DNA of 64,000 nucleotides from assembly GCF_014897815.1 (NCBI RefSeq), contig NZ_JABUZG010000046.1, positions 62,001 through 126,000 on the forward strand. Direction: 5' to 3'. The position numbers were made by a program, and so were the translations under genes. Shown in pieces: positions 3,856-62,292 of the stretch (positions within the stretch are counted from its first letter, which is position 1; each line of letters begins with the position of its first letter). The notes beneath the pieces are model-generated. The model was not told where the DNA came from and did no database searches. It saw only the letters and a list, made by a program, of their open reading frames with translations. Source of the stretch: Psychrobacter sp. PG1. GTDB taxonomy: Bacteria; Pseudomonadota; Gammaproteobacteria; Pseudomonadales; Moraxellaceae.

Positions 3856-5183
3856 TCTTGACCTTTTTGCGTTAAATAAGCTTGGCTTAAATACGTGCTC
3901 ACCACTTTTAATAACGCTTCGCAAAGAGTGACAAGTTCGTATTCGCTAATCACATATGGCGGCATGATATAAACCAGTTTCCCAAAGGGTCTGATCCAAA
4001 TATCATTCTCAATCAATAAAGCCTGAAAGATAGGCATCTCAACCGCTTCATTTAGCTCAATGACGGCAACTGCGCCCAGACAGCGTACTTCCTTAACACC
4101 GTCTAGCAGCGCAGCTGGCGCTAGCTGCTGCTCCATAGTCCGTTGCATATTTGCAGTACGCGCTTCAATATCATAGGAGAGTATTAAATCAATTGAGGCA
4201 CAAGCGACGGCACAAGCCAGCGGATTGCCCATAAAGGTCGGACCGTGCATCAGTGCCGGATAATCACTTTGGCTAATGGTATCAGCAATTTTTCGAGTAC
4301 ATAAAGTCGCGGCAAAAGTCATATAACCGCCAGTTAATGCTTTACCAATCGTCATGATGTCAGGGCTGATACTCGCATGCTCACAAGCGAATAATTTGCC
4401 ACTACGCCCAAAACCAGTCGCGATTTCATCAGCAATTAGTACTACTTTGTATTTATCACACAATTTGCGAAGCAATTGTAAATATTGAGGACTATAAAAG
4501 CGCATGCCGCCTGCGCCTTGAATAATCGGCTCGATAATAAATCCAGCCAACTTATCGCTATTTTTATCAAAGAAATCCGTTAATTCATCATATTCAGACT
4601 GGCTAATATCACGTTCAAAGCCCATTGGCGGAGCTGGCACAAAATGCTGCATAGGTAATTGCTTGCCATAGAGACTATGCATGCCATTGATAGGGTCGCA
4701 GACACTCATCGCATGCCACGTATCACCATAATAACCTGAATGGGTCGAGGCAAATTGGCACTTTTGCGGACGCTTAGCAGCAATTTGATATTGCAATGCC
4801 ATTTTTAATGCTACTTCTACCGCAATGCTGCCGCTATCGGCATAAAATATGGCATCCAGTCCAGCAGGCACAATTGACAGCAGTTTTTTGCCCAAATCTA
4901 TTGCGGGTTGATGGGTCAAACCACCAAACATGACATGCGCCATTTTACCCAATTGTTCAATCATCGCTGCATTCAGCTTGGGATGATTATAGCCATGGAC
5001 ACTCGCCCACCAAGATGACATCCCATCGATCAGACGCGTGCCATCTTGCGTGACGATATAAATACCATCAGCGTGATCAATCACAATATTAGGATAAGTC
5101 GGCGGTAAGCTGGCATAAGGATGCCAGAGATGTTGCTGGTCAAAGTCGTTCGTTGATTTCGTAGATGAGAGTGATGTTGTCAT
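3852..5183 (-). CDS. bioA: Adenosylmethionine-8-amino-7-oxononanoate aminotransferase
   Basis: A 443-residue PLP-dependent class III aminotransferase that uses S-adenosylmethionine as amino donor to make 7,8-diaminopelargonate, the substrate of BioD. Visible features are the substrate-binding SSWWA (56-60), HSGYYGDTWHAM (148-159), the aspartate in ADEI (252) that contacts the PLP ring nitrogen, and the PLP lysine K281 in TIGKALTGG. Length is normal for BioA. The start at 5183 lies three bases after the ferredoxin stop and the end overlaps bioD by four bases, so all three are expected on one message. No bioB, bioC, bioF or bioH is in this window. Confidence 0.96.
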   Translation of the reverse strand: MTTSLSSTKSTNDFDQQHLWHPYASLPPTYPNIVIDHADGIYIVTQDGTRLIDGMSSWWASVHGYNHPKLNAAMIEQLGKMAHVMFGGLTHQPAIDLGKKLLSIVPAGLDAIFYADSGSIAVEVALKMALQYQIAAKRPQKCQFASTHSGYYGDTWHAMSVCDPINGMHSLYGKQLPMQHFVPAPPMGFERDISQSEYDELTDFFDKNSDKLAGFIIEPIIQGAGGMRFYSPQYLQLLRKLCDKYKVVLIADEIATGFGRSGKLFACEHASISPDIMTIGKALTGGYMTFAATLCTRKIADTISQSDYPALMHGPTFMGNPLACAVACASIDLILSYDIEARTANMQRTMEQQLAPAALLDGVKEVRCLGAVAVIELNEAVEMPIFQALLIENDIWIRPFGKLVYIMPPYVISEYELVTLCEALLKVVSTYLSQAYLTQKGQE

Positions 5184-5186
5184 ATT

Positions 5187-5456
<270 letters not shown>

Positions 5457-58304: not shown

Positions 58305-59606
58305 ATGAGTCAATCGAATACCACAGACGTTACTGCCTATATGCAAGCTGTCGGCAAGCAAGCAAGAGCGGCTTCTCGTGTGCTGGCTGCGGCAAACACT
58401 GGTGACAAAAACTCAGCATTAATGGCGATTCATGATGTGTTAAAAGAGGCCAAATCAGATATTTTGGCCGCCAATAAAACCGATATGGATAATGGACAAA
58501 ACAACGATTTAGAGGCAGCCTTACTGGATCGCTTAGAGCTAAATGATGCCCGCTTTGACGGCATGCTCCAAGGGTTAAAAGACGTCGCTTCATTACCAGA
58601 CCCTATCGGCGAAGTCACCGACATGACCTATCAGCCATCAGGGATTCATTTGGGTAAAATGCGGGTGCCGCTCGGCGTGGTCGGTATGATTTATGAGTCG
58701 CGCCCTAACGTGACCTTAGAAGCGGCTTCATTGGCGCTAAAATCAGGCAACGCTATTATCTTGCGCGGCGGCTCTGAAGCGTTTGAATCCAATCAAGCGA
58801 TTGCCAAGTGTATCTTGGAAGGACTACAAAAAGTCGGGCTGTCTGAGCACAGTGTGCAAGTATTACAAACGACGGATCGTGCTGCTGTCGGCGAGCTGAT
58901 CACCATGACAGATTATGTCGATGTCATCGTGCCACGTGGCGGTAAAGGTCTGATTGCGCGTATCAGTAACGATGCAAAAGTACCTGTAATTAAGCATTTA
59001 GACGGTAACTGCCATACCTTTATCGATAGTGATGCGGATGCCGAAATCGCCATCAAGGTCAGCGTCAATGCAAAAACCCATCGCTACGGTACGTGTAATA
59101 CTATGGAGACGCTATTGATCGACGAATCAGTCGCGGGTGAGCTATTGCCAAAGATTGCCGAAGCCATCATCGCCGCTGATGATGCGATGCAATTGCGCCT
59201 TGATAACAAGTCGCAAGCCATCTTAAATGACAATGCTAAGCTTGCTGGACATCTGTCTGCAGCCACTGCTGAGGATTGGGATACCGAATATTTAGCGCCT
59301 ATCTTAGCAGTAAAAGTTTTGTCAGGTATTGACGAAGCCATTGAACATATCAACACTCATGGCAGCCATCATACCGACGTTATCATTACCGACAACTATA
59401 CCAAGTCGCAACGCTTCATCCGTGAAGTCGACTCGGCGAGCGTCATGATTAACGCCTCTAGCCGTTTTGCCGATGGCTTTGAGTATGGATTGGGTGCCGA
59501 GATTGGCATCTCGACCGATAAAATCCATGCTCGTGGTCCAGTAGGACTTGAAGGTCTCACCTCACAAAAATGGATCGTGTATGGTCATGGTGAGACTCGC
59601 GCCTAA
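58305..59606 (+). CDS. proA: Gamma-glutamyl phosphate reductase
   Basis: A 433-residue NADPH-dependent enzyme that reduces gamma-glutamyl phosphate to glutamate semialdehyde in proline synthesis. The catalytic cysteine is C264 in [36 protein letters not shown] in the nucleotide-binding domain and the C-terminal [36 protein letters not shown] are conserved. proB is not adjacent, unlike in E. coli, so the two steps are separately encoded here or proB lies outside the window. Confidence 0.96.
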
Positions 59607-59657
59607 CGTCTTATCGCTTAGCCTATCATCCACTCTCTCATTTAACGTATAATCCAC

Positions 59658-59692
59658 AAAAAAACGCCAGCTCAATTGCTGGCGTTTTTTAG
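59658..59692 (+). terminator. Terminator after proA
   Basis: AAAAACGCCAGC and GCTGGCGTTTTT with a six-base loop. Confidence 0.92.
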
Positions 59693-59787
59693 TAGTGTCA
59701 AATATGTTATATATGCGGCATCAAAACCATATGTATGATAGAAGTCATGCGGCACGATAACAAAACAGGCGATAGGAAAGTGGGCTT

Positions 59788-60558
59788 ATGCAGAGTGGTA
59801 AAATCAAGCACTGGAATTCAGATAAAGGCTATGGCTTTATCGATGTAGACAATCAAAGTGAAGACGTGTTTTTTCATGTGAGTAAAGTGCGATTATCACA
59901 GCCGATAACCGTTGGTCAAAGCGTCTATTTTAATAGTGAGCGTAATGATAAAAACCAACTACGAGCCACTGAAGTCACTTCCAACGAATTGAGTATTTTA
60001 GCCACTCCAAACTCAAATATAACCAATCACTATTCAAATACTGGCAGCCGAAACAACTCTACTGATAATAACAAAAACCCGCGACACACTACCCCTGACA
60101 ATAGCCATCATCAGCGTGGCAATCAAAACAAGAGAAGCTTAGGCTCTACCCTATTTAGTGTGATTGCCCTTATTGCCGTCGCTGTTTATTTTTTTGGTGA
60201 TTTGTCGTCTGGGTTTTTGACCGATAGTATTAACCCAACGACGGTATCAGAAACTTCATCAGAGGCACAGCCAGCAAAGACAAGCGGCGTCACGGGCGAT
60301 GCTCAGATAGACAATACCATTGCCCTTATACAACGAGGCGGGCCTTTTCCTTATCCTCATAAAGATGGCACGACATTTTATAATCGTGAGAGCAGATTGC
60401 CCGCGCAGTCGCAAGGCTACTACCGCGAATATACCGTGCCTACCCCTGGCGTGTCACATCGCGGTGCACGGCGTATCGTCACAGGTGGTCATCCACCGAC
60501 CGTATATTACTTGACCGTTGATCACTATGATAGCTTTCGCAGACTGGACGTAAAATAA
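59788..60558 (+). CDS. Cold-shock domain, transmembrane and barnase-like ribonuclease fusion
   Basis: A 256-residue three-part protein. Residues 1-65 are a cold-shock domain with the RNA-binding KGYGFI (13-18) and VFFHVS (27-32). An Asn/Ser-rich linker leads to one membrane segment at about 119-137, then a second linker. Residues about 172-256 are a ribonuclease N1/barnase fold: FYNRESRLP, YYREY (E214 matching barnase E73), RGARRI (R225 and R229 matching R83 and R87) and VDHYDSF (H246 matching H102), so the active site is intact. With the basic KR before the membrane segment the ribonuclease would face the periplasm. One base separates it from a barstar-like gene, which marks it as a toxin/inhibitor pair. 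Confidence 0.88.
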   Translation: MQSGKIKHWNSDKGYGFIDVDNQSEDVFFHVSKVRLSQPITVGQSVYFNSERNDKNQLRATEVTSNELSILATPNSNITNHYSNTGSRNNSTDNNKNPRHTTPDNSHHQRGNQNKRSLGSTLFSVIALIAVAVYFFGDLSSGFLTDSINPTTVSETSSEAQPAKTSGVTGDAQIDNTIALIQRGGPFPYPHKDGTTFYNRESRLPAQSQGYYREYTVPTPGVSHRGARRIVTGGHPPTVYYLTVDHYDSFRRLDVK

Positions 60559-60559
60559 T

Positions 60560-60928
60560 ATGAGTAAAGCCATCCACTATATTAATCTGGGTTTTGACCA
60601 AGATATTAACCAAAAAACTACAGCACTAAATGCTAGCATGCCCGCTCAGACTGTTAACATACCGGTAGACGAGATACTCAATAAAACCACATTATTAACA
60701 AACTTAGCCAATGCCTGTGATTTTCCCAGCTATTTTTCACATAACTGGGATAGCGCATGGGACTGTTTAACGGACAGCGAAGTGACTCACCTGATGCTGG
60801 ATCTAACAGCGGTGAAAAAAATAAACACCGAAGATTTTAATGTTTTCAAAAGCATCATTGAAGATGCTTACAGAGATTTTAGCAAGCCGCAATTATGGGT
60901 TATTATGCCGTCCGTGGATGATGCCTAG
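60560..60928 (+). CDS. Barstar-like ribonuclease inhibitor
   Basis: A 122-residue small acidic protein. PVDEILNKTTLLTNLANACDFPSYF followed by HNWDSAWDCLTD is the barstar signature (helix, then NWDALWDCLTD-like). The later HLMLDLTAVKKIN and LWVIMPS give the remaining strands. It should bind and block the barnase-like domain of the protein encoded one base upstream. Start ATG 60560 follows the upstream stop so closely that translational coupling is likely. It presumably stays in the cytoplasm. Confidence 0.9.
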   Translation: MSKAIHYINLGFDQDINQKTTALNASMPAQTVNIPVDEILNKTTLLTNLANACDFPSYFSHNWDSAWDCLTDSEVTHLMLDLTAVKKINTEDFNVFKSIIEDAYRDFSKPQLWVIMPSVDDA

Positions 60929-60945
60929 TCGCCAATCACCACACA

Positions 60946-60989
60946 AACCTGAATTCGAGATAAAACCATATTTATCCCGAATTCAGGTT
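60946..60989 (+). terminator. Terminator after the barstar gene
   Basis: A long stem, AACCTGAATTCG/CGAATTCAGGTT with an inner GATAAA/TTTATC, separated by single mismatches, followed by a T-rich stretch. Confidence 0.8.
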
Positions 60990-61017
60990 AATTTATTTTT
61001 ATAGAAAGGATTAATAT

Positions 61018-62292
61018 ATGGAAATTACCCTAAACGGCTATTACACGCTGATACTAGCCACTCTAGTGCTGCTGCTTGGGCGCTTTTTGGTCAAGAAAAT
61101 TAAATTCTTAGAAGATTTTAACATTCCAGAGCCTGTTGCTGGTGGTTTGGTCGCGGCAATAGTGGTCTATATTCTAAATATCATTTGGGGATATAGTTTT
61201 AACTTTCATCAAGGATTACAGACGGCTACCATGCTGATGTTTTTTGCCTCTATTGGTTTGAGTGCTGATTTTAGTAGACTCAAAGCTGGTGGTACGCCAT
61301 TGTTGATTTTTACCATCGTTGTGTCCGTTTTTATCGTCTTGCAAGATGTCGTTGGTGTGGCCATGGCAAGCGCGTTGGGACTTGATCCACTACTTGGATT
61401 AGTGACAGGTTCTATCGCCCTGACTGGTGGTCACGGTACGGCAGGTGCTTGGGGTATCACCTTGGAGCAAGATTACGGTGTGGTCGGTGCAACGACACTT
61501 GGTATCGCCGTTGCCACCTACGGCTTAGTCGCTGGTGGTATCATTGGCGGTCCTGTGGCCCGTCGCCTGATTCAAAAGCTGGGGTTAAAACCAACGCCCG
61601 CCAATCCCAATCCTAGTGACATCGAAAAAGTCGCTGGTGCGCAGTCGCTTTATAGCACCAAACATGATGAAGATTCGGCGAGTAGCAATAAAGAAATTTT
61701 CGAAAGACCTGACAGCATGCGCTTTATCACCGCCTCTTCTACTATTGAGACATTGGCATTGTTTGCCGCAGCGTTGGCTTTCGCCGATGTCATGACGCTT
61801 GTTGCCCAAGGCACGTGGTTTGAGCTACCTACCTTCGTTTGGGCGTTGGCAGGTGGTGTGATTATTCGTAATGTCTTAACCACTATCTTTAATTTTGATA
61901 TGTTTGATCGCTCTATCGACGTATTTGGTAACGCTTCTTTGAGTCTGTTCTTAGCCATGGCGCTGCTGTCATTGAAGCTATGGCAGCTGACTGATTTGGC
62001 AGGTCCTGTGTTGATTATCTTATTGGTACAGACGGTCATTATGGTTGTTTATGTCTATTTCATAACCTTTAAGGTGATGGGTAAAGACTATGATGCAGCG
62101 GTCTTGTCAGCTGGACATTGTGGTTTCGGTATGGGTGCGACGCCAACGGCGATTGCCAATATGCAGGCGGTCACGGATCGCTATCTGCCTTCGCCTAAGG
62201 CGTTTTTGATTGTGCCAATGGTTGGTGCATTCTTTGTCGATATCGTCAACGCGACGATCTTGCAGATATTTACTAAACTGCCGTTTATGTAA
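61018..62292 (+). CDS. gltS: Sodium/glutamate symporter
   Basis: A 424-residue inner-membrane protein with about 11 hydrophobic segments. The two pseudo-repeat motifs LTGGHGTAGAWG in the first half and SAGHCGFGMGATPTAIANM in the second half define the GltS family, which imports glutamate with sodium. NIPEPVAGGL in the N-terminal region is also conserved. A hydrophilic loop of about 45 residues (NPNPSDIEKVAG...) joins the halves. AAGGA lies eight bases upstream of the ATG. Confidence 0.95.
   Translation: MEITLNGYYTLILATLVLLLGRFLVKKIKFLEDFNIPEPVAGGLVAAIVVYILNIIWGYSFNFHQGLQTATMLMFFASIGLSADFSRLKAGGTPLLIFTIVVSVFIVLQDVVGVAMASALGLDPLLGLVTGSIALTGGHGTAGAWGITLEQDYGVVGATTLGIAVATYGLVAGGIIGGPVARRLIQKLGLKPTPANPNPSDIEKVAGAQSLYSTKHDEDSASSNKEIFERPDSMRFITASSTIETLALFAAALAFADVMTLVAQGTWFELPTFVWALAGGVIIRNVLTTIFNFDMFDRSIDVFGNASLSLFLAMALLSLKLWQLTDLAGPVLIILLVQTVIMVVYVYFITFKVMGKDYDAAVLSAGHCGFGMGATPTAIANMQAVTDRYLPSPKAFLIVPMVGAFFVDIVNATILQIFTKLPFM

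What the first reader, a model, noticed from the sequence alone, without database searches (positions are those of the whole stretch)
59788..60928. Cold-shock domain-transmembrane-barnase fusion with a barstar partner
One protein joins an RNA-binding cold-shock domain, a membrane segment and a barnase-like ribonuclease whose catalytic E, two R and H are all present; a barstar-like inhibitor gene starts one base later. Classical barnase is secreted and has no RNA-binding domain. Here the toxin could be held in the inner membrane with the RNA-binding part in the cytoplasm and the ribonuclease outside, or be inserted so that both face the cytoplasm. In either case it may be a membrane-tethered RNA sensor or processing enzyme, or an envelope toxin, rather than a simple secreted toxin. 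I do not know a described system with this architecture.
Basis: partly seen in the sequence, partly recalled or inferred. Interest (0 to 1): 0.75.

Follow-up and report, generated by a model that had tools for sequence, protein, structure and literature searches.

The report
RNA-binding domain fused to membrane RNase
A bacterial gene pair encodes an RNA-cutting enzyme that is probably anchored in the inner membrane and faces outward, with an RNA-binding cold-shock domain on the inside and a barstar-type inhibitor made alongside it; the parts are known, but we found no description of this combination.

Summary
ORF 59788-60558 joins a cold-shock domain, a linker, one transmembrane helix and a guanyl-specific ribonuclease nearer to RNase Sa than to barnase; a barstar gene follows one base later. 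Active-site residues are invariant in 41 of 41 distinct same-genus fusions. Of 60 same-genus (Psychrobacter) genomes, 48 carry both genes and the other 12 neither. The fusion also occurs in Stutzerimonas, Pseudomonas, a Thiopseudomonas MAG and two genomes of another family. Of 94 distinct un-fused relatives, 88 have a hydrophobic segment ahead of the RNase. Charge around the helix is positive-inside in 42 of 42 fusions. CSD inside and nuclease outside is therefore well supported; both in the cytoplasm is not. The CSD is under purifying selection almost as strong as the nuclease, yet one genome has deleted it and one has a stop codon behind it. Best reading: a membrane-tethered periplasmic RNase with a cytosolic barstar as safety partner; the CSD probably serves synthesis or placement of the enzyme. 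Topology, activity and the CSD's role are inferred, not shown. New variant of a known kind.

The parts
59788..60558 (+). CSD-TM-ribonuclease fusion gene, 256 aa
   Evidence: ORF; Pfam CSD and PF00545; orthologues
59794..59979 (+). cold-shock domain (aa 3-64) with KGYGFI and VFFH motifs
   Evidence: AlphaFold2 pLDDT about 92, Foldseek hits to CspA, CspB and YB-1 domains; pN/pS 0.145
59986..60123 (+). variable Asn/His/Ser/Arg-rich linker (aa 67-112), cytoplasmic in the proposed topology
   Evidence: pN/pS 0.674 and variable length
60139..60195 (+). transmembrane helix or signal anchor (aa 118-136), basic residues before it and acidic after it
   Evidence: hydropathy and charge, N-side more positive in 42 of 42 fusions
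60199..60285 (+). stalk between membrane and ribonuclease (aa 138-166)
   Evidence: pN/pS 0.538
60292..60546 (+). guanyl-specific ribonuclease domain (aa 169-253), RNase Sa type
   Evidence: PF00545 1.3e-20; 1mgr 1.4e-24; pN/pS 0.113
60427..60429 (+). Glu214, catalytic glutamate
   Evidence: aligned to RNase Sa3; invariant 41/41; the catalytic role is recalled
60460..60474 (+). Arg225 to Arg229 (R225, R228, R229), active-site arginines
   Evidence: invariant 41/41; roles recalled
60523..60525 (+). His246, catalytic histidine
   Evidence: invariant 41/41; role recalled
60560..60928 (+). barstar-family inhibitor, 122 aa; no hydrophobic leader seen by eye
   Evidence: PF01337 6.5e-13; AlphaFold2 pLDDT 83.5; Foldseek ranks 1-30 are barstars, best E 4.8e-3
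60749..60763 (+). Asp64 and Asp68 of the barstar (D35 and D39 of Bacillus barstar by position in the motif)
   Evidence: invariant in 26 of 26 barstars aligned; the role of D35/D39 is recalled
59665..59690 (+). stem-loop with T run after the upstream gene, separating the pair from it
   Evidence: read by eye and seen in most rows of the upstream alignment; not reported by the pattern scan

Best explanation
The pair is an inner-membrane-tethered, outward-facing guanyl-specific ribonuclease with its cytosolic inhibitor. The CSD is made first and stays in the cytoplasm. The single helix acts as an internal, uncleaved signal anchor that moves the RNase into the periplasm, where it cuts RNA after G (RNA taken up or released by lysing neighbours, or RNA outside the cell if the enzyme is shed at the stalk). 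The barstar, encoded one base later and probably translationally coupled, blocks any enzyme that folds in the cytoplasm before export. The CSD keeps its nucleic-acid-binding residues and most likely binds RNA at the inner face of the membrane, its own mRNA being the simplest target, and so tunes synthesis or membrane placement of a dangerous enzyme; it cannot hand substrate to an RNase on the other side. Shown here: architecture, conservation, co-occurrence, active-site and interface residues, positive-inside signature. Inferred: topology in the cell, enzyme activity, inhibition. Guessed: the role of the CSD (about 0.3 for self-regulation or placement).
For: Positive-inside rule: mean charge +3.8 before and -2.3 after the helix, 42 of 42 distinct fusions. 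88 of 94 distinct un-fused relatives outside the genus have a hydrophobic segment ahead of the RNase. RNase Sa homology 1.4e-24 with the active site invariant. Barstar next to the RNase in 17 of 18 RNase-bearing genomes outside the genus that were tested and within 400 nt in 78 of 80 loci; in the genus the same 48 of 60 genomes carry both genes and the same 12 neither. Natural variants that fit an outside nuclease: G963 has an intact fusion and no barstar match in its genome, a tRNA-Gly following the fusion; G020 has lost CSD and linker in frame, keeping MQSGK plus anchor plus RNase with the barstar intact. CSD under selection: pN/pS 0.145 against 0.113 for the RNase and 0.674 for the linker.
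Against: No experiment. The helix and its orientation rest on hydropathy and charge; no dedicated topology program was run. AlphaFold2 gave the nuclease pLDDT about 50 and Foldseek showed no RNase among its 50 listed hits. Strict co-occurrence with a cytosolic inhibitor is also what a cytoplasmic toxin would show. The CSD is dispensable in G020 and separated by a stop codon in G041. No conserved element other than the stem-loop after the upstream gene and the ribosome-binding region was seen ahead of the start codon in 21 aligned upstream regions, and Rfam gave nothing over its cut-offs, which weakens self-regulation through a leader.
Confidence: 0.7

Rival explanations
1. Cytoplasmic toxin-antitoxin pair: CSD and RNase both act in the cytoplasm, the CSD guiding the RNase to mRNAs under stress, with barstar as antitoxin.
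For: One-base gap and strict co-occurrence with the inhibitor; CSD and RNase both act on nucleic acid by family.
Against: A single helix lies between the domains with positive-inside charge in 42 of 42; un-fused kin look exported or anchored; a fusion without a barstar exists; the pair sits between the same two genes in 54 of 60 loci, the other six being cut short, elsewhere or from another genus; no record among 72,556 plasmids or 50,697 phages has a place covering 80% of the fusion.
Confidence: 0.08
2. Shed or released antagonistic RNase: the stalk is cut in the periplasm and the enzyme reaches the medium or rivals; barstar is self-immunity.
For: Relatives with secretion-type leaders; the fast-evolving stalk (pN/pS 0.538); toxin-then-immunity gene order, noted for simple barnase-barstar pairs in PMC3482391 (passages read).
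Against: No route across the outer membrane and no cleavage motif was looked for; a cytoplasmic barstar does not protect against periplasmic RNase.
Confidence: 0.2
3. The CSD is a passive cytoplasmic cap or anchor with no RNA-related function.
For: CSD deleted in G020 and cut off by a stop codon in G041 while RNase and barstar frames stayed open; an outward-facing RNase cannot share substrate with it.
Against: CSD pN/pS 0.145; K13, Y15, F17, F28, F29 and H30 invariant in 41 of 41 and W9 in 40 of 41; CSD kept in fusions of three families.
Confidence: 0.2
4. Breach-activated or defence enzyme: when the membrane is damaged by phage or a competitor, the anchored RNase meets cytoplasmic RNA and destroys it.
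For: Geometry only: RNA binder inside, RNase just outside. The CSD also matches CSD models of defence libraries: PADLOC CSD_V at 1.4e-9 and, far below its cut-off (30.3 of 82 bits), the NCBIfam retron Se72 effector model; other CSD models score as well or better, so this is weak.
Against: Cytosolic barstar would block it; the barstar matches no PADLOC model at 0.1; no retron was looked for.
Confidence: 0.07

Closest known systems
Secreted RNase Sa / barnase with barstar (PF00545 + PF01337)
   Same: Nuclease family, active site, inhibitor gene next door
   Different: Here the enzyme is placed behind an internal anchor and carries a cytoplasmic CSD ahead of it
Un-fused RNase-barstar pairs with an N-terminal leader or anchor (for example Rheinheimera, Alishewanella, Marinobacterium, Halomonas, Xanthomonas loci)
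   Same: RNase domain, hydrophobic leader, barstar in most
   Different: No CSD
CSD-DUF1294 membrane proteins
   Same: N-terminal CSD followed by membrane helices; one is encoded in this same genome; free Csps form a separate supported group that excludes the CSDs of both
   Different: The C-terminal part is DUF1294, not a nuclease family
Polymorphic toxins with Tox-Barnase and Imm-Barstar (PMC3482391, passages read)
   Same: Barnase-fold toxin and barstar immunity, toxin gene first
   Different: No repeats or export-apparatus domain here; the held text has no occurrence of 'cold shock' or 'CSD'
CoCoNuT systems with CSD-like domains (PMC11090510, passages read)
   Same: CSD-like fold joined to machinery predicted to target RNA
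   Different: McrB-type GTPases and other nucleases; no relation to these proteins was seen

Membership tests
PF00545 guanyl-specific ribonuclease (RNase Sa/N1/T1) | Profile match over curated cut-off | tested here: met
   74.1 bits against cut-off 24
PF00545 guanyl-specific ribonuclease (RNase Sa/N1/T1) | Catalytic E, R, R, H | tested here: met
   Aligned with RNase Sa3, invariant 41/41; catalytic roles recalled
PF00545 guanyl-specific ribonuclease (RNase Sa/N1/T1) | Microbial RNase fold in a model | tested here: inconclusive
   Helix then strands in order but pLDDT about 50; no RNase among the 50 Foldseek hits listed
PF00545 guanyl-specific ribonuclease (RNase Sa/N1/T1) | G-specific RNA cleavage | not testable with these tools
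   needs an enzyme assay
Barstar (PF01337) | Profile match and fold | tested here: met
   48.9 bits against 23.4; model pLDDT 83.5; Foldseek ranks 1-30 are barstars though the best E is 4.8e-3
Barstar (PF01337) | The two interface aspartates | tested here: met
   D64 and D68 invariant in 26 of 26
Barstar (PF01337) | Inhibits the partner RNase | not testable with these tools
   no complex could be modelled
Cold-shock domain (PF00313) | Profile, fold, nucleic-acid-contact residues | tested here: met
   49 bits against 27; Foldseek 1hzb 2.3e-5, CspA 1mjc 2.6e-4; residues 41/41, W9 40/41
CspA-type cold-shock protein | CSD groups with free-standing Csps | tested here: not met
   Free Csps form a starred group (98/95) without the fused CSDs (20 rows, 68 columns)
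Type II toxin-antitoxin | Both proteins in the cytoplasm | tested here: not met
   By prediction only: positive-inside charge places the RNase outside

The most novel reading that the evidence does not exclude
A transmembrane RNA-responsive switch: RNA bound by the cytoplasmic CSD (for example on cold or translation stress) changes insertion, clustering or proteolytic release of the periplasmic RNase, so that the state of cytoplasmic RNA sets RNA degradation outside the membrane.
Probability: 0.12. Interest if true: 0.85.

Novelty: new variant of a known kind. Interest (0 to 1): 0.48.

Why it matters
RNase-barstar pairs are textbook material from Bacillus (recalled), but the paper searches made here listed no study of their function in Gram-negative bacteria. 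A conserved RNA-binding domain on the opposite side of the membrane from the RNase, with natural CSD-less and barstar-less variants, makes two questions testable: what the inhibitor is really for, and what a membrane-bound CSD does.

Tried and rejected
Considered and rejected: chance ORF or frame artefact (both genes in 48 of 60 same-genus genomes); a second internal ATG start giving a CSD-free product in the window (no further Met in the 256 aa; GTG and TTG starts were not tested); origin of the CSD from the csp gene that lies beside the Stutzerimonas and Pseudomonas fusions (fused CSDs do not group with free Csps); mobile-element cargo (no full-length match in plasmids or phages).

Led nowhere: Rfam on 59500-61100 (4 hits, all far below the gathering scores); promoter scan (8 sites against 4.2 expected, none taken up); NCBIfam gave CSD models below their cut-offs and one chance-level flagellar model for the fusion, nothing for the barstar; the AlphaFold2 model of the nuclease was poor; paper searches for CSD plus barnase plus barstar, CSD plus DUF1294, and barstar plus Psychrobacter each gave 0 papers.

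Against or limiting my reading: of 94 distinct un-fused frames, six did not pass the hydropathy threshold: L114 and L122 just missed it, L081 and L199 are cut by a contig end, L084 and L173 have no such segment; the measure is crude, it takes up to 110 residues of open frame and does not fix the start codon. The RNase-domain tree has few columns (88) and leaves open one or two origins of the fusion; two rows labelled un-fused there (L152, cut by a contig end, and L049, split by a stop) inflate its count of 4 changes. L206 (Amycolatopsis) and L211 (Halomonas) have no barstar hit. The barstar test was given 18 of the 20 RNase-bearing genomes known then outside the genus (G892 and G968 left out, and none of those first seen). 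Eight matches had no locus and were not read, and L082 (G892) gave no hit to my model. The pN/pS values use 41 distinct same-genus fusions (35 barstars); the charge count those 41 plus L075; L083, the Pseudomonadaceae fusions, L049 and broken copies were not in either. The scan kept the best 80 of at least 556 relatives, and part of the output was cut from view.

Full report
Observation. The window holds a 256-aa ORF at 59788-60558 and a 122-aa ORF at 60560-60928, one base apart. Pfam finds a cold-shock domain (5.7e-13, aa 3-64) and a PF00545 ribonuclease (1.3e-20, aa 169-253) in the first and a barstar (6.5e-13) in the second. Against sequences of solved structures the nuclease matches RNase Sa3 at 1.4e-24 and RNase Sa entries at 2e-21 to 6e-20, but barnase and binase entries only at 0.0027 or worse: it is of the RNase Sa type. 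The barstar matches Bacillus barstar weakly by sequence (best 0.033), but its model (pLDDT 83.5) has barstars in Foldseek ranks 1-30 (best E 4.8e-3). The CSD model is confident (pLDDT about 92) and matches CspA, CspB and YB-1 domains; the nuclease part of the same model is not (about 50). The fold of the nuclease therefore rests on sequence homology, not on the model.

Setting. The upstream gene (58305-59606) matches the aldehyde dehydrogenase family and is named proA here from recall; a stem-loop with a T run follows it. The downstream gene is a sodium/glutamate symporter by Pfam, here gltS. Of the 60 loci fetched (30 each, some genomes twice), all 60 have an RNase match and a barstar match; 54 also show both proA and gltS, in the order proA, fusion, barstar, gltS; L004 and L042 show proA only, L036 and L050 gltS only, L031 and L032 neither; in L032, from another genus, only the RNase part matches.

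Who has it. In 60 genomes of the genus, 48 have the RNase part and the same 48 have the barstar; the same 12 have neither. Of the 48, 43 show an uninterrupted fused frame. The other five are G020 (CSD deleted), G041 (stop codon in the linker), G058 (frames of both genes interrupted, 85% complete assembly), G059 (interrupted copy in a genome of 340 contigs, on another contig than proA) and G032 (contig end, the record L152). The genus is Psychrobacter: 18 of the 21 fused loci of the named collection bear that name, and P. coccoides (L151) has the same protein as G125. In 199 genomes of the family, PF00545 occurs in 53: 52 of the genus and one, G087, of another genus. G087 has a 122-aa RNase with an N-terminal anchor, no CSD, and a barstar next to it. 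One of the 52, G137, has the domain at 43.6 bits in a 1469-aa frame and looks like a different kind of toxin.

Beyond the genus. PF00545 occurs in 14 of 390 genomes of the order sample, 15 of 369 of the class sample and 35 of 398 of the phylum sample (the samples overlap and include genomes of the genus). Among the loci read from these, CSD fusions outside the genus were seen only in G742 and, after a further search in its order (3 of 32 with PF00545), in G963 of the same genus; eight matches had no locus and were not read. A scan of 84,980 species genomes returned the best 80 of at least 556 relatives: 21 are fused, 18 in Psychrobacter and one each in Stutzerimonas stutzeri K1, Pseudomonas oryzagri and a Thiopseudomonas MAG; 78 of 80 have a barstar within 400 nt downstream. 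Because of the cut at 80, further fusions may exist. In an RNase-domain tree the Psychrobacter, G742/G963 and Thiopseudomonas fusions share a fork (SH-aLRT 85) and the Stutzerimonas/Pseudomonas fusions sit with un-fused Halomonas (83); one or two origins both remain possible.

Within the genus, a proA tree of 32 genomes (11 of the 12 without the pair) needs four changes between presence and absence, 3-4 over bootstraps. One genome without the pair, G036, keeps a decayed barstar between proA and gltS, so at least one absence is a loss.

Topology. The most hydrophobic 19 residues lie at aa 118-136 (mean Kyte-Doolittle 2.25). Over 42 distinct fusions (41 of the genus and L075) the N-side flank averages +3.8 and the C-side -2.3, with the N-side higher in 42 of 42. 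Of 99 distinct RNase frames outside the genus, 5 are fused; of the 94 others, 88 have a 15-residue stretch of hydropathy 1.6 or more within 110 residues ahead of the domain; L084 and L173 have none, L114 and L122 just miss the threshold, L081 and L199 are cut by contig ends. G020 shows the relation plainly: in the same locus MQSGK is followed by the anchor and the RNase, CSD and linker being gone, and Pfam finds the RNase alone (9e-21). G041 has a stop codon between CSD and anchor, with in-frame GTG codons after it. The simple picture is a CSD added in front of, and occasionally lost from, a signal-anchored RNase.

Constraint. Mean pairwise pN/pS is 0.145 for the CSD, 0.674 for the linker, 0.213 for the helix region, 0.538 for the stalk, 0.113 for the RNase and 0.173 for the barstar core (41 distinct fusions, 35 barstars). 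K13, Y15, F17, F28, F29 and H30 of the CSD (contact positions named from recall of CspA) and the RNase active site are invariant in 41 of 41, W9 in 40. The CSD is thus selected for in most of these lineages. Fused CSDs lie outside the supported group of free Csps, in a poorly resolved part of the tree with CSDs of CSD-DUF1294 membrane proteins; one such protein is encoded elsewhere in this genome.

Inhibitor. Barstar was found next to the RNase in 17 of 18 RNase-bearing genomes outside the genus that were tested. The exception is G963: its fusion keeps the active-site residues, no barstar reached E 0.001 in the genome (rated 100% complete), and a tRNA-Gly follows 57 nt after the fusion. Loss of a barstar is easier to bear if the enzyme is exported.

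Mechanism. I commit to a membrane-tethered periplasmic guanyl RNase with a cytosolic guard (0.7), the CSD tuning synthesis or placement (about 0.3 for that last step). The substrate outside the membrane is unknown. Rivals are listed with weights.

Literature. Eight searches of the held open-access library listed no paper whose title or abstract start describes the architecture; apart from two papers I saw the listings only, and one search listed 15 of 20. PMC3482391 (passages read; first 300,000 of 357,715 characters held) speaks of simple barnase-barstar pairs as an incipient toxin-immunity order and has no occurrence of cold shock. PMC11090510 (passages read) joins CSD-like folds to other systems. 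Most subscription journals and preprints are not covered.

Verdict. A real, conserved and selected new combination of known parts: new variant of a known kind, interest 0.48.

Noticed in passing
L012:1044-1493, L013, L021 and others (barstar N-termini): The barstar N-terminus carries a variable number of INQN-like repeats, from none to about seven, between a conserved start (MSxAIxY) and the barstar core.
   Followed up: no
L229 (G036), between proA and gltS: Decayed barstar remnant at the site where the pair is absent.
   Followed up: partly
L245 (G049): Fusion and barstar lie after gltS while a second barstar fragment lies between proA and gltS.
   Followed up: no
L247:1495-2157 (Halomonas plasmid NZ_CP130702.1): Another CSD protein (Pfam CSD 6e-14) with hydrophobic stretches and a CxxC...CxxC motif by eye, suggesting that membrane-bound CSDs are a wider theme.
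   Followed up: partly
L147 and L149, about 5150-5440: In Stutzerimonas and Pseudomonas the fusion-barstar pair is followed by a free-standing csp-like frame on the opposite strand.
   Followed up: partly
G137:C1:3105061-3105270: PF00545 match inside a 1469-aa open frame in a same-genus genome, possibly the tip of a large toxin.
   Followed up: no
plasmid hits H9-H13 (Enterobacter, Citrobacter, E. coli): An RNase-domain match of 48.8% identity with no listed gene under it; that gene table is incomplete.
   Followed up: no
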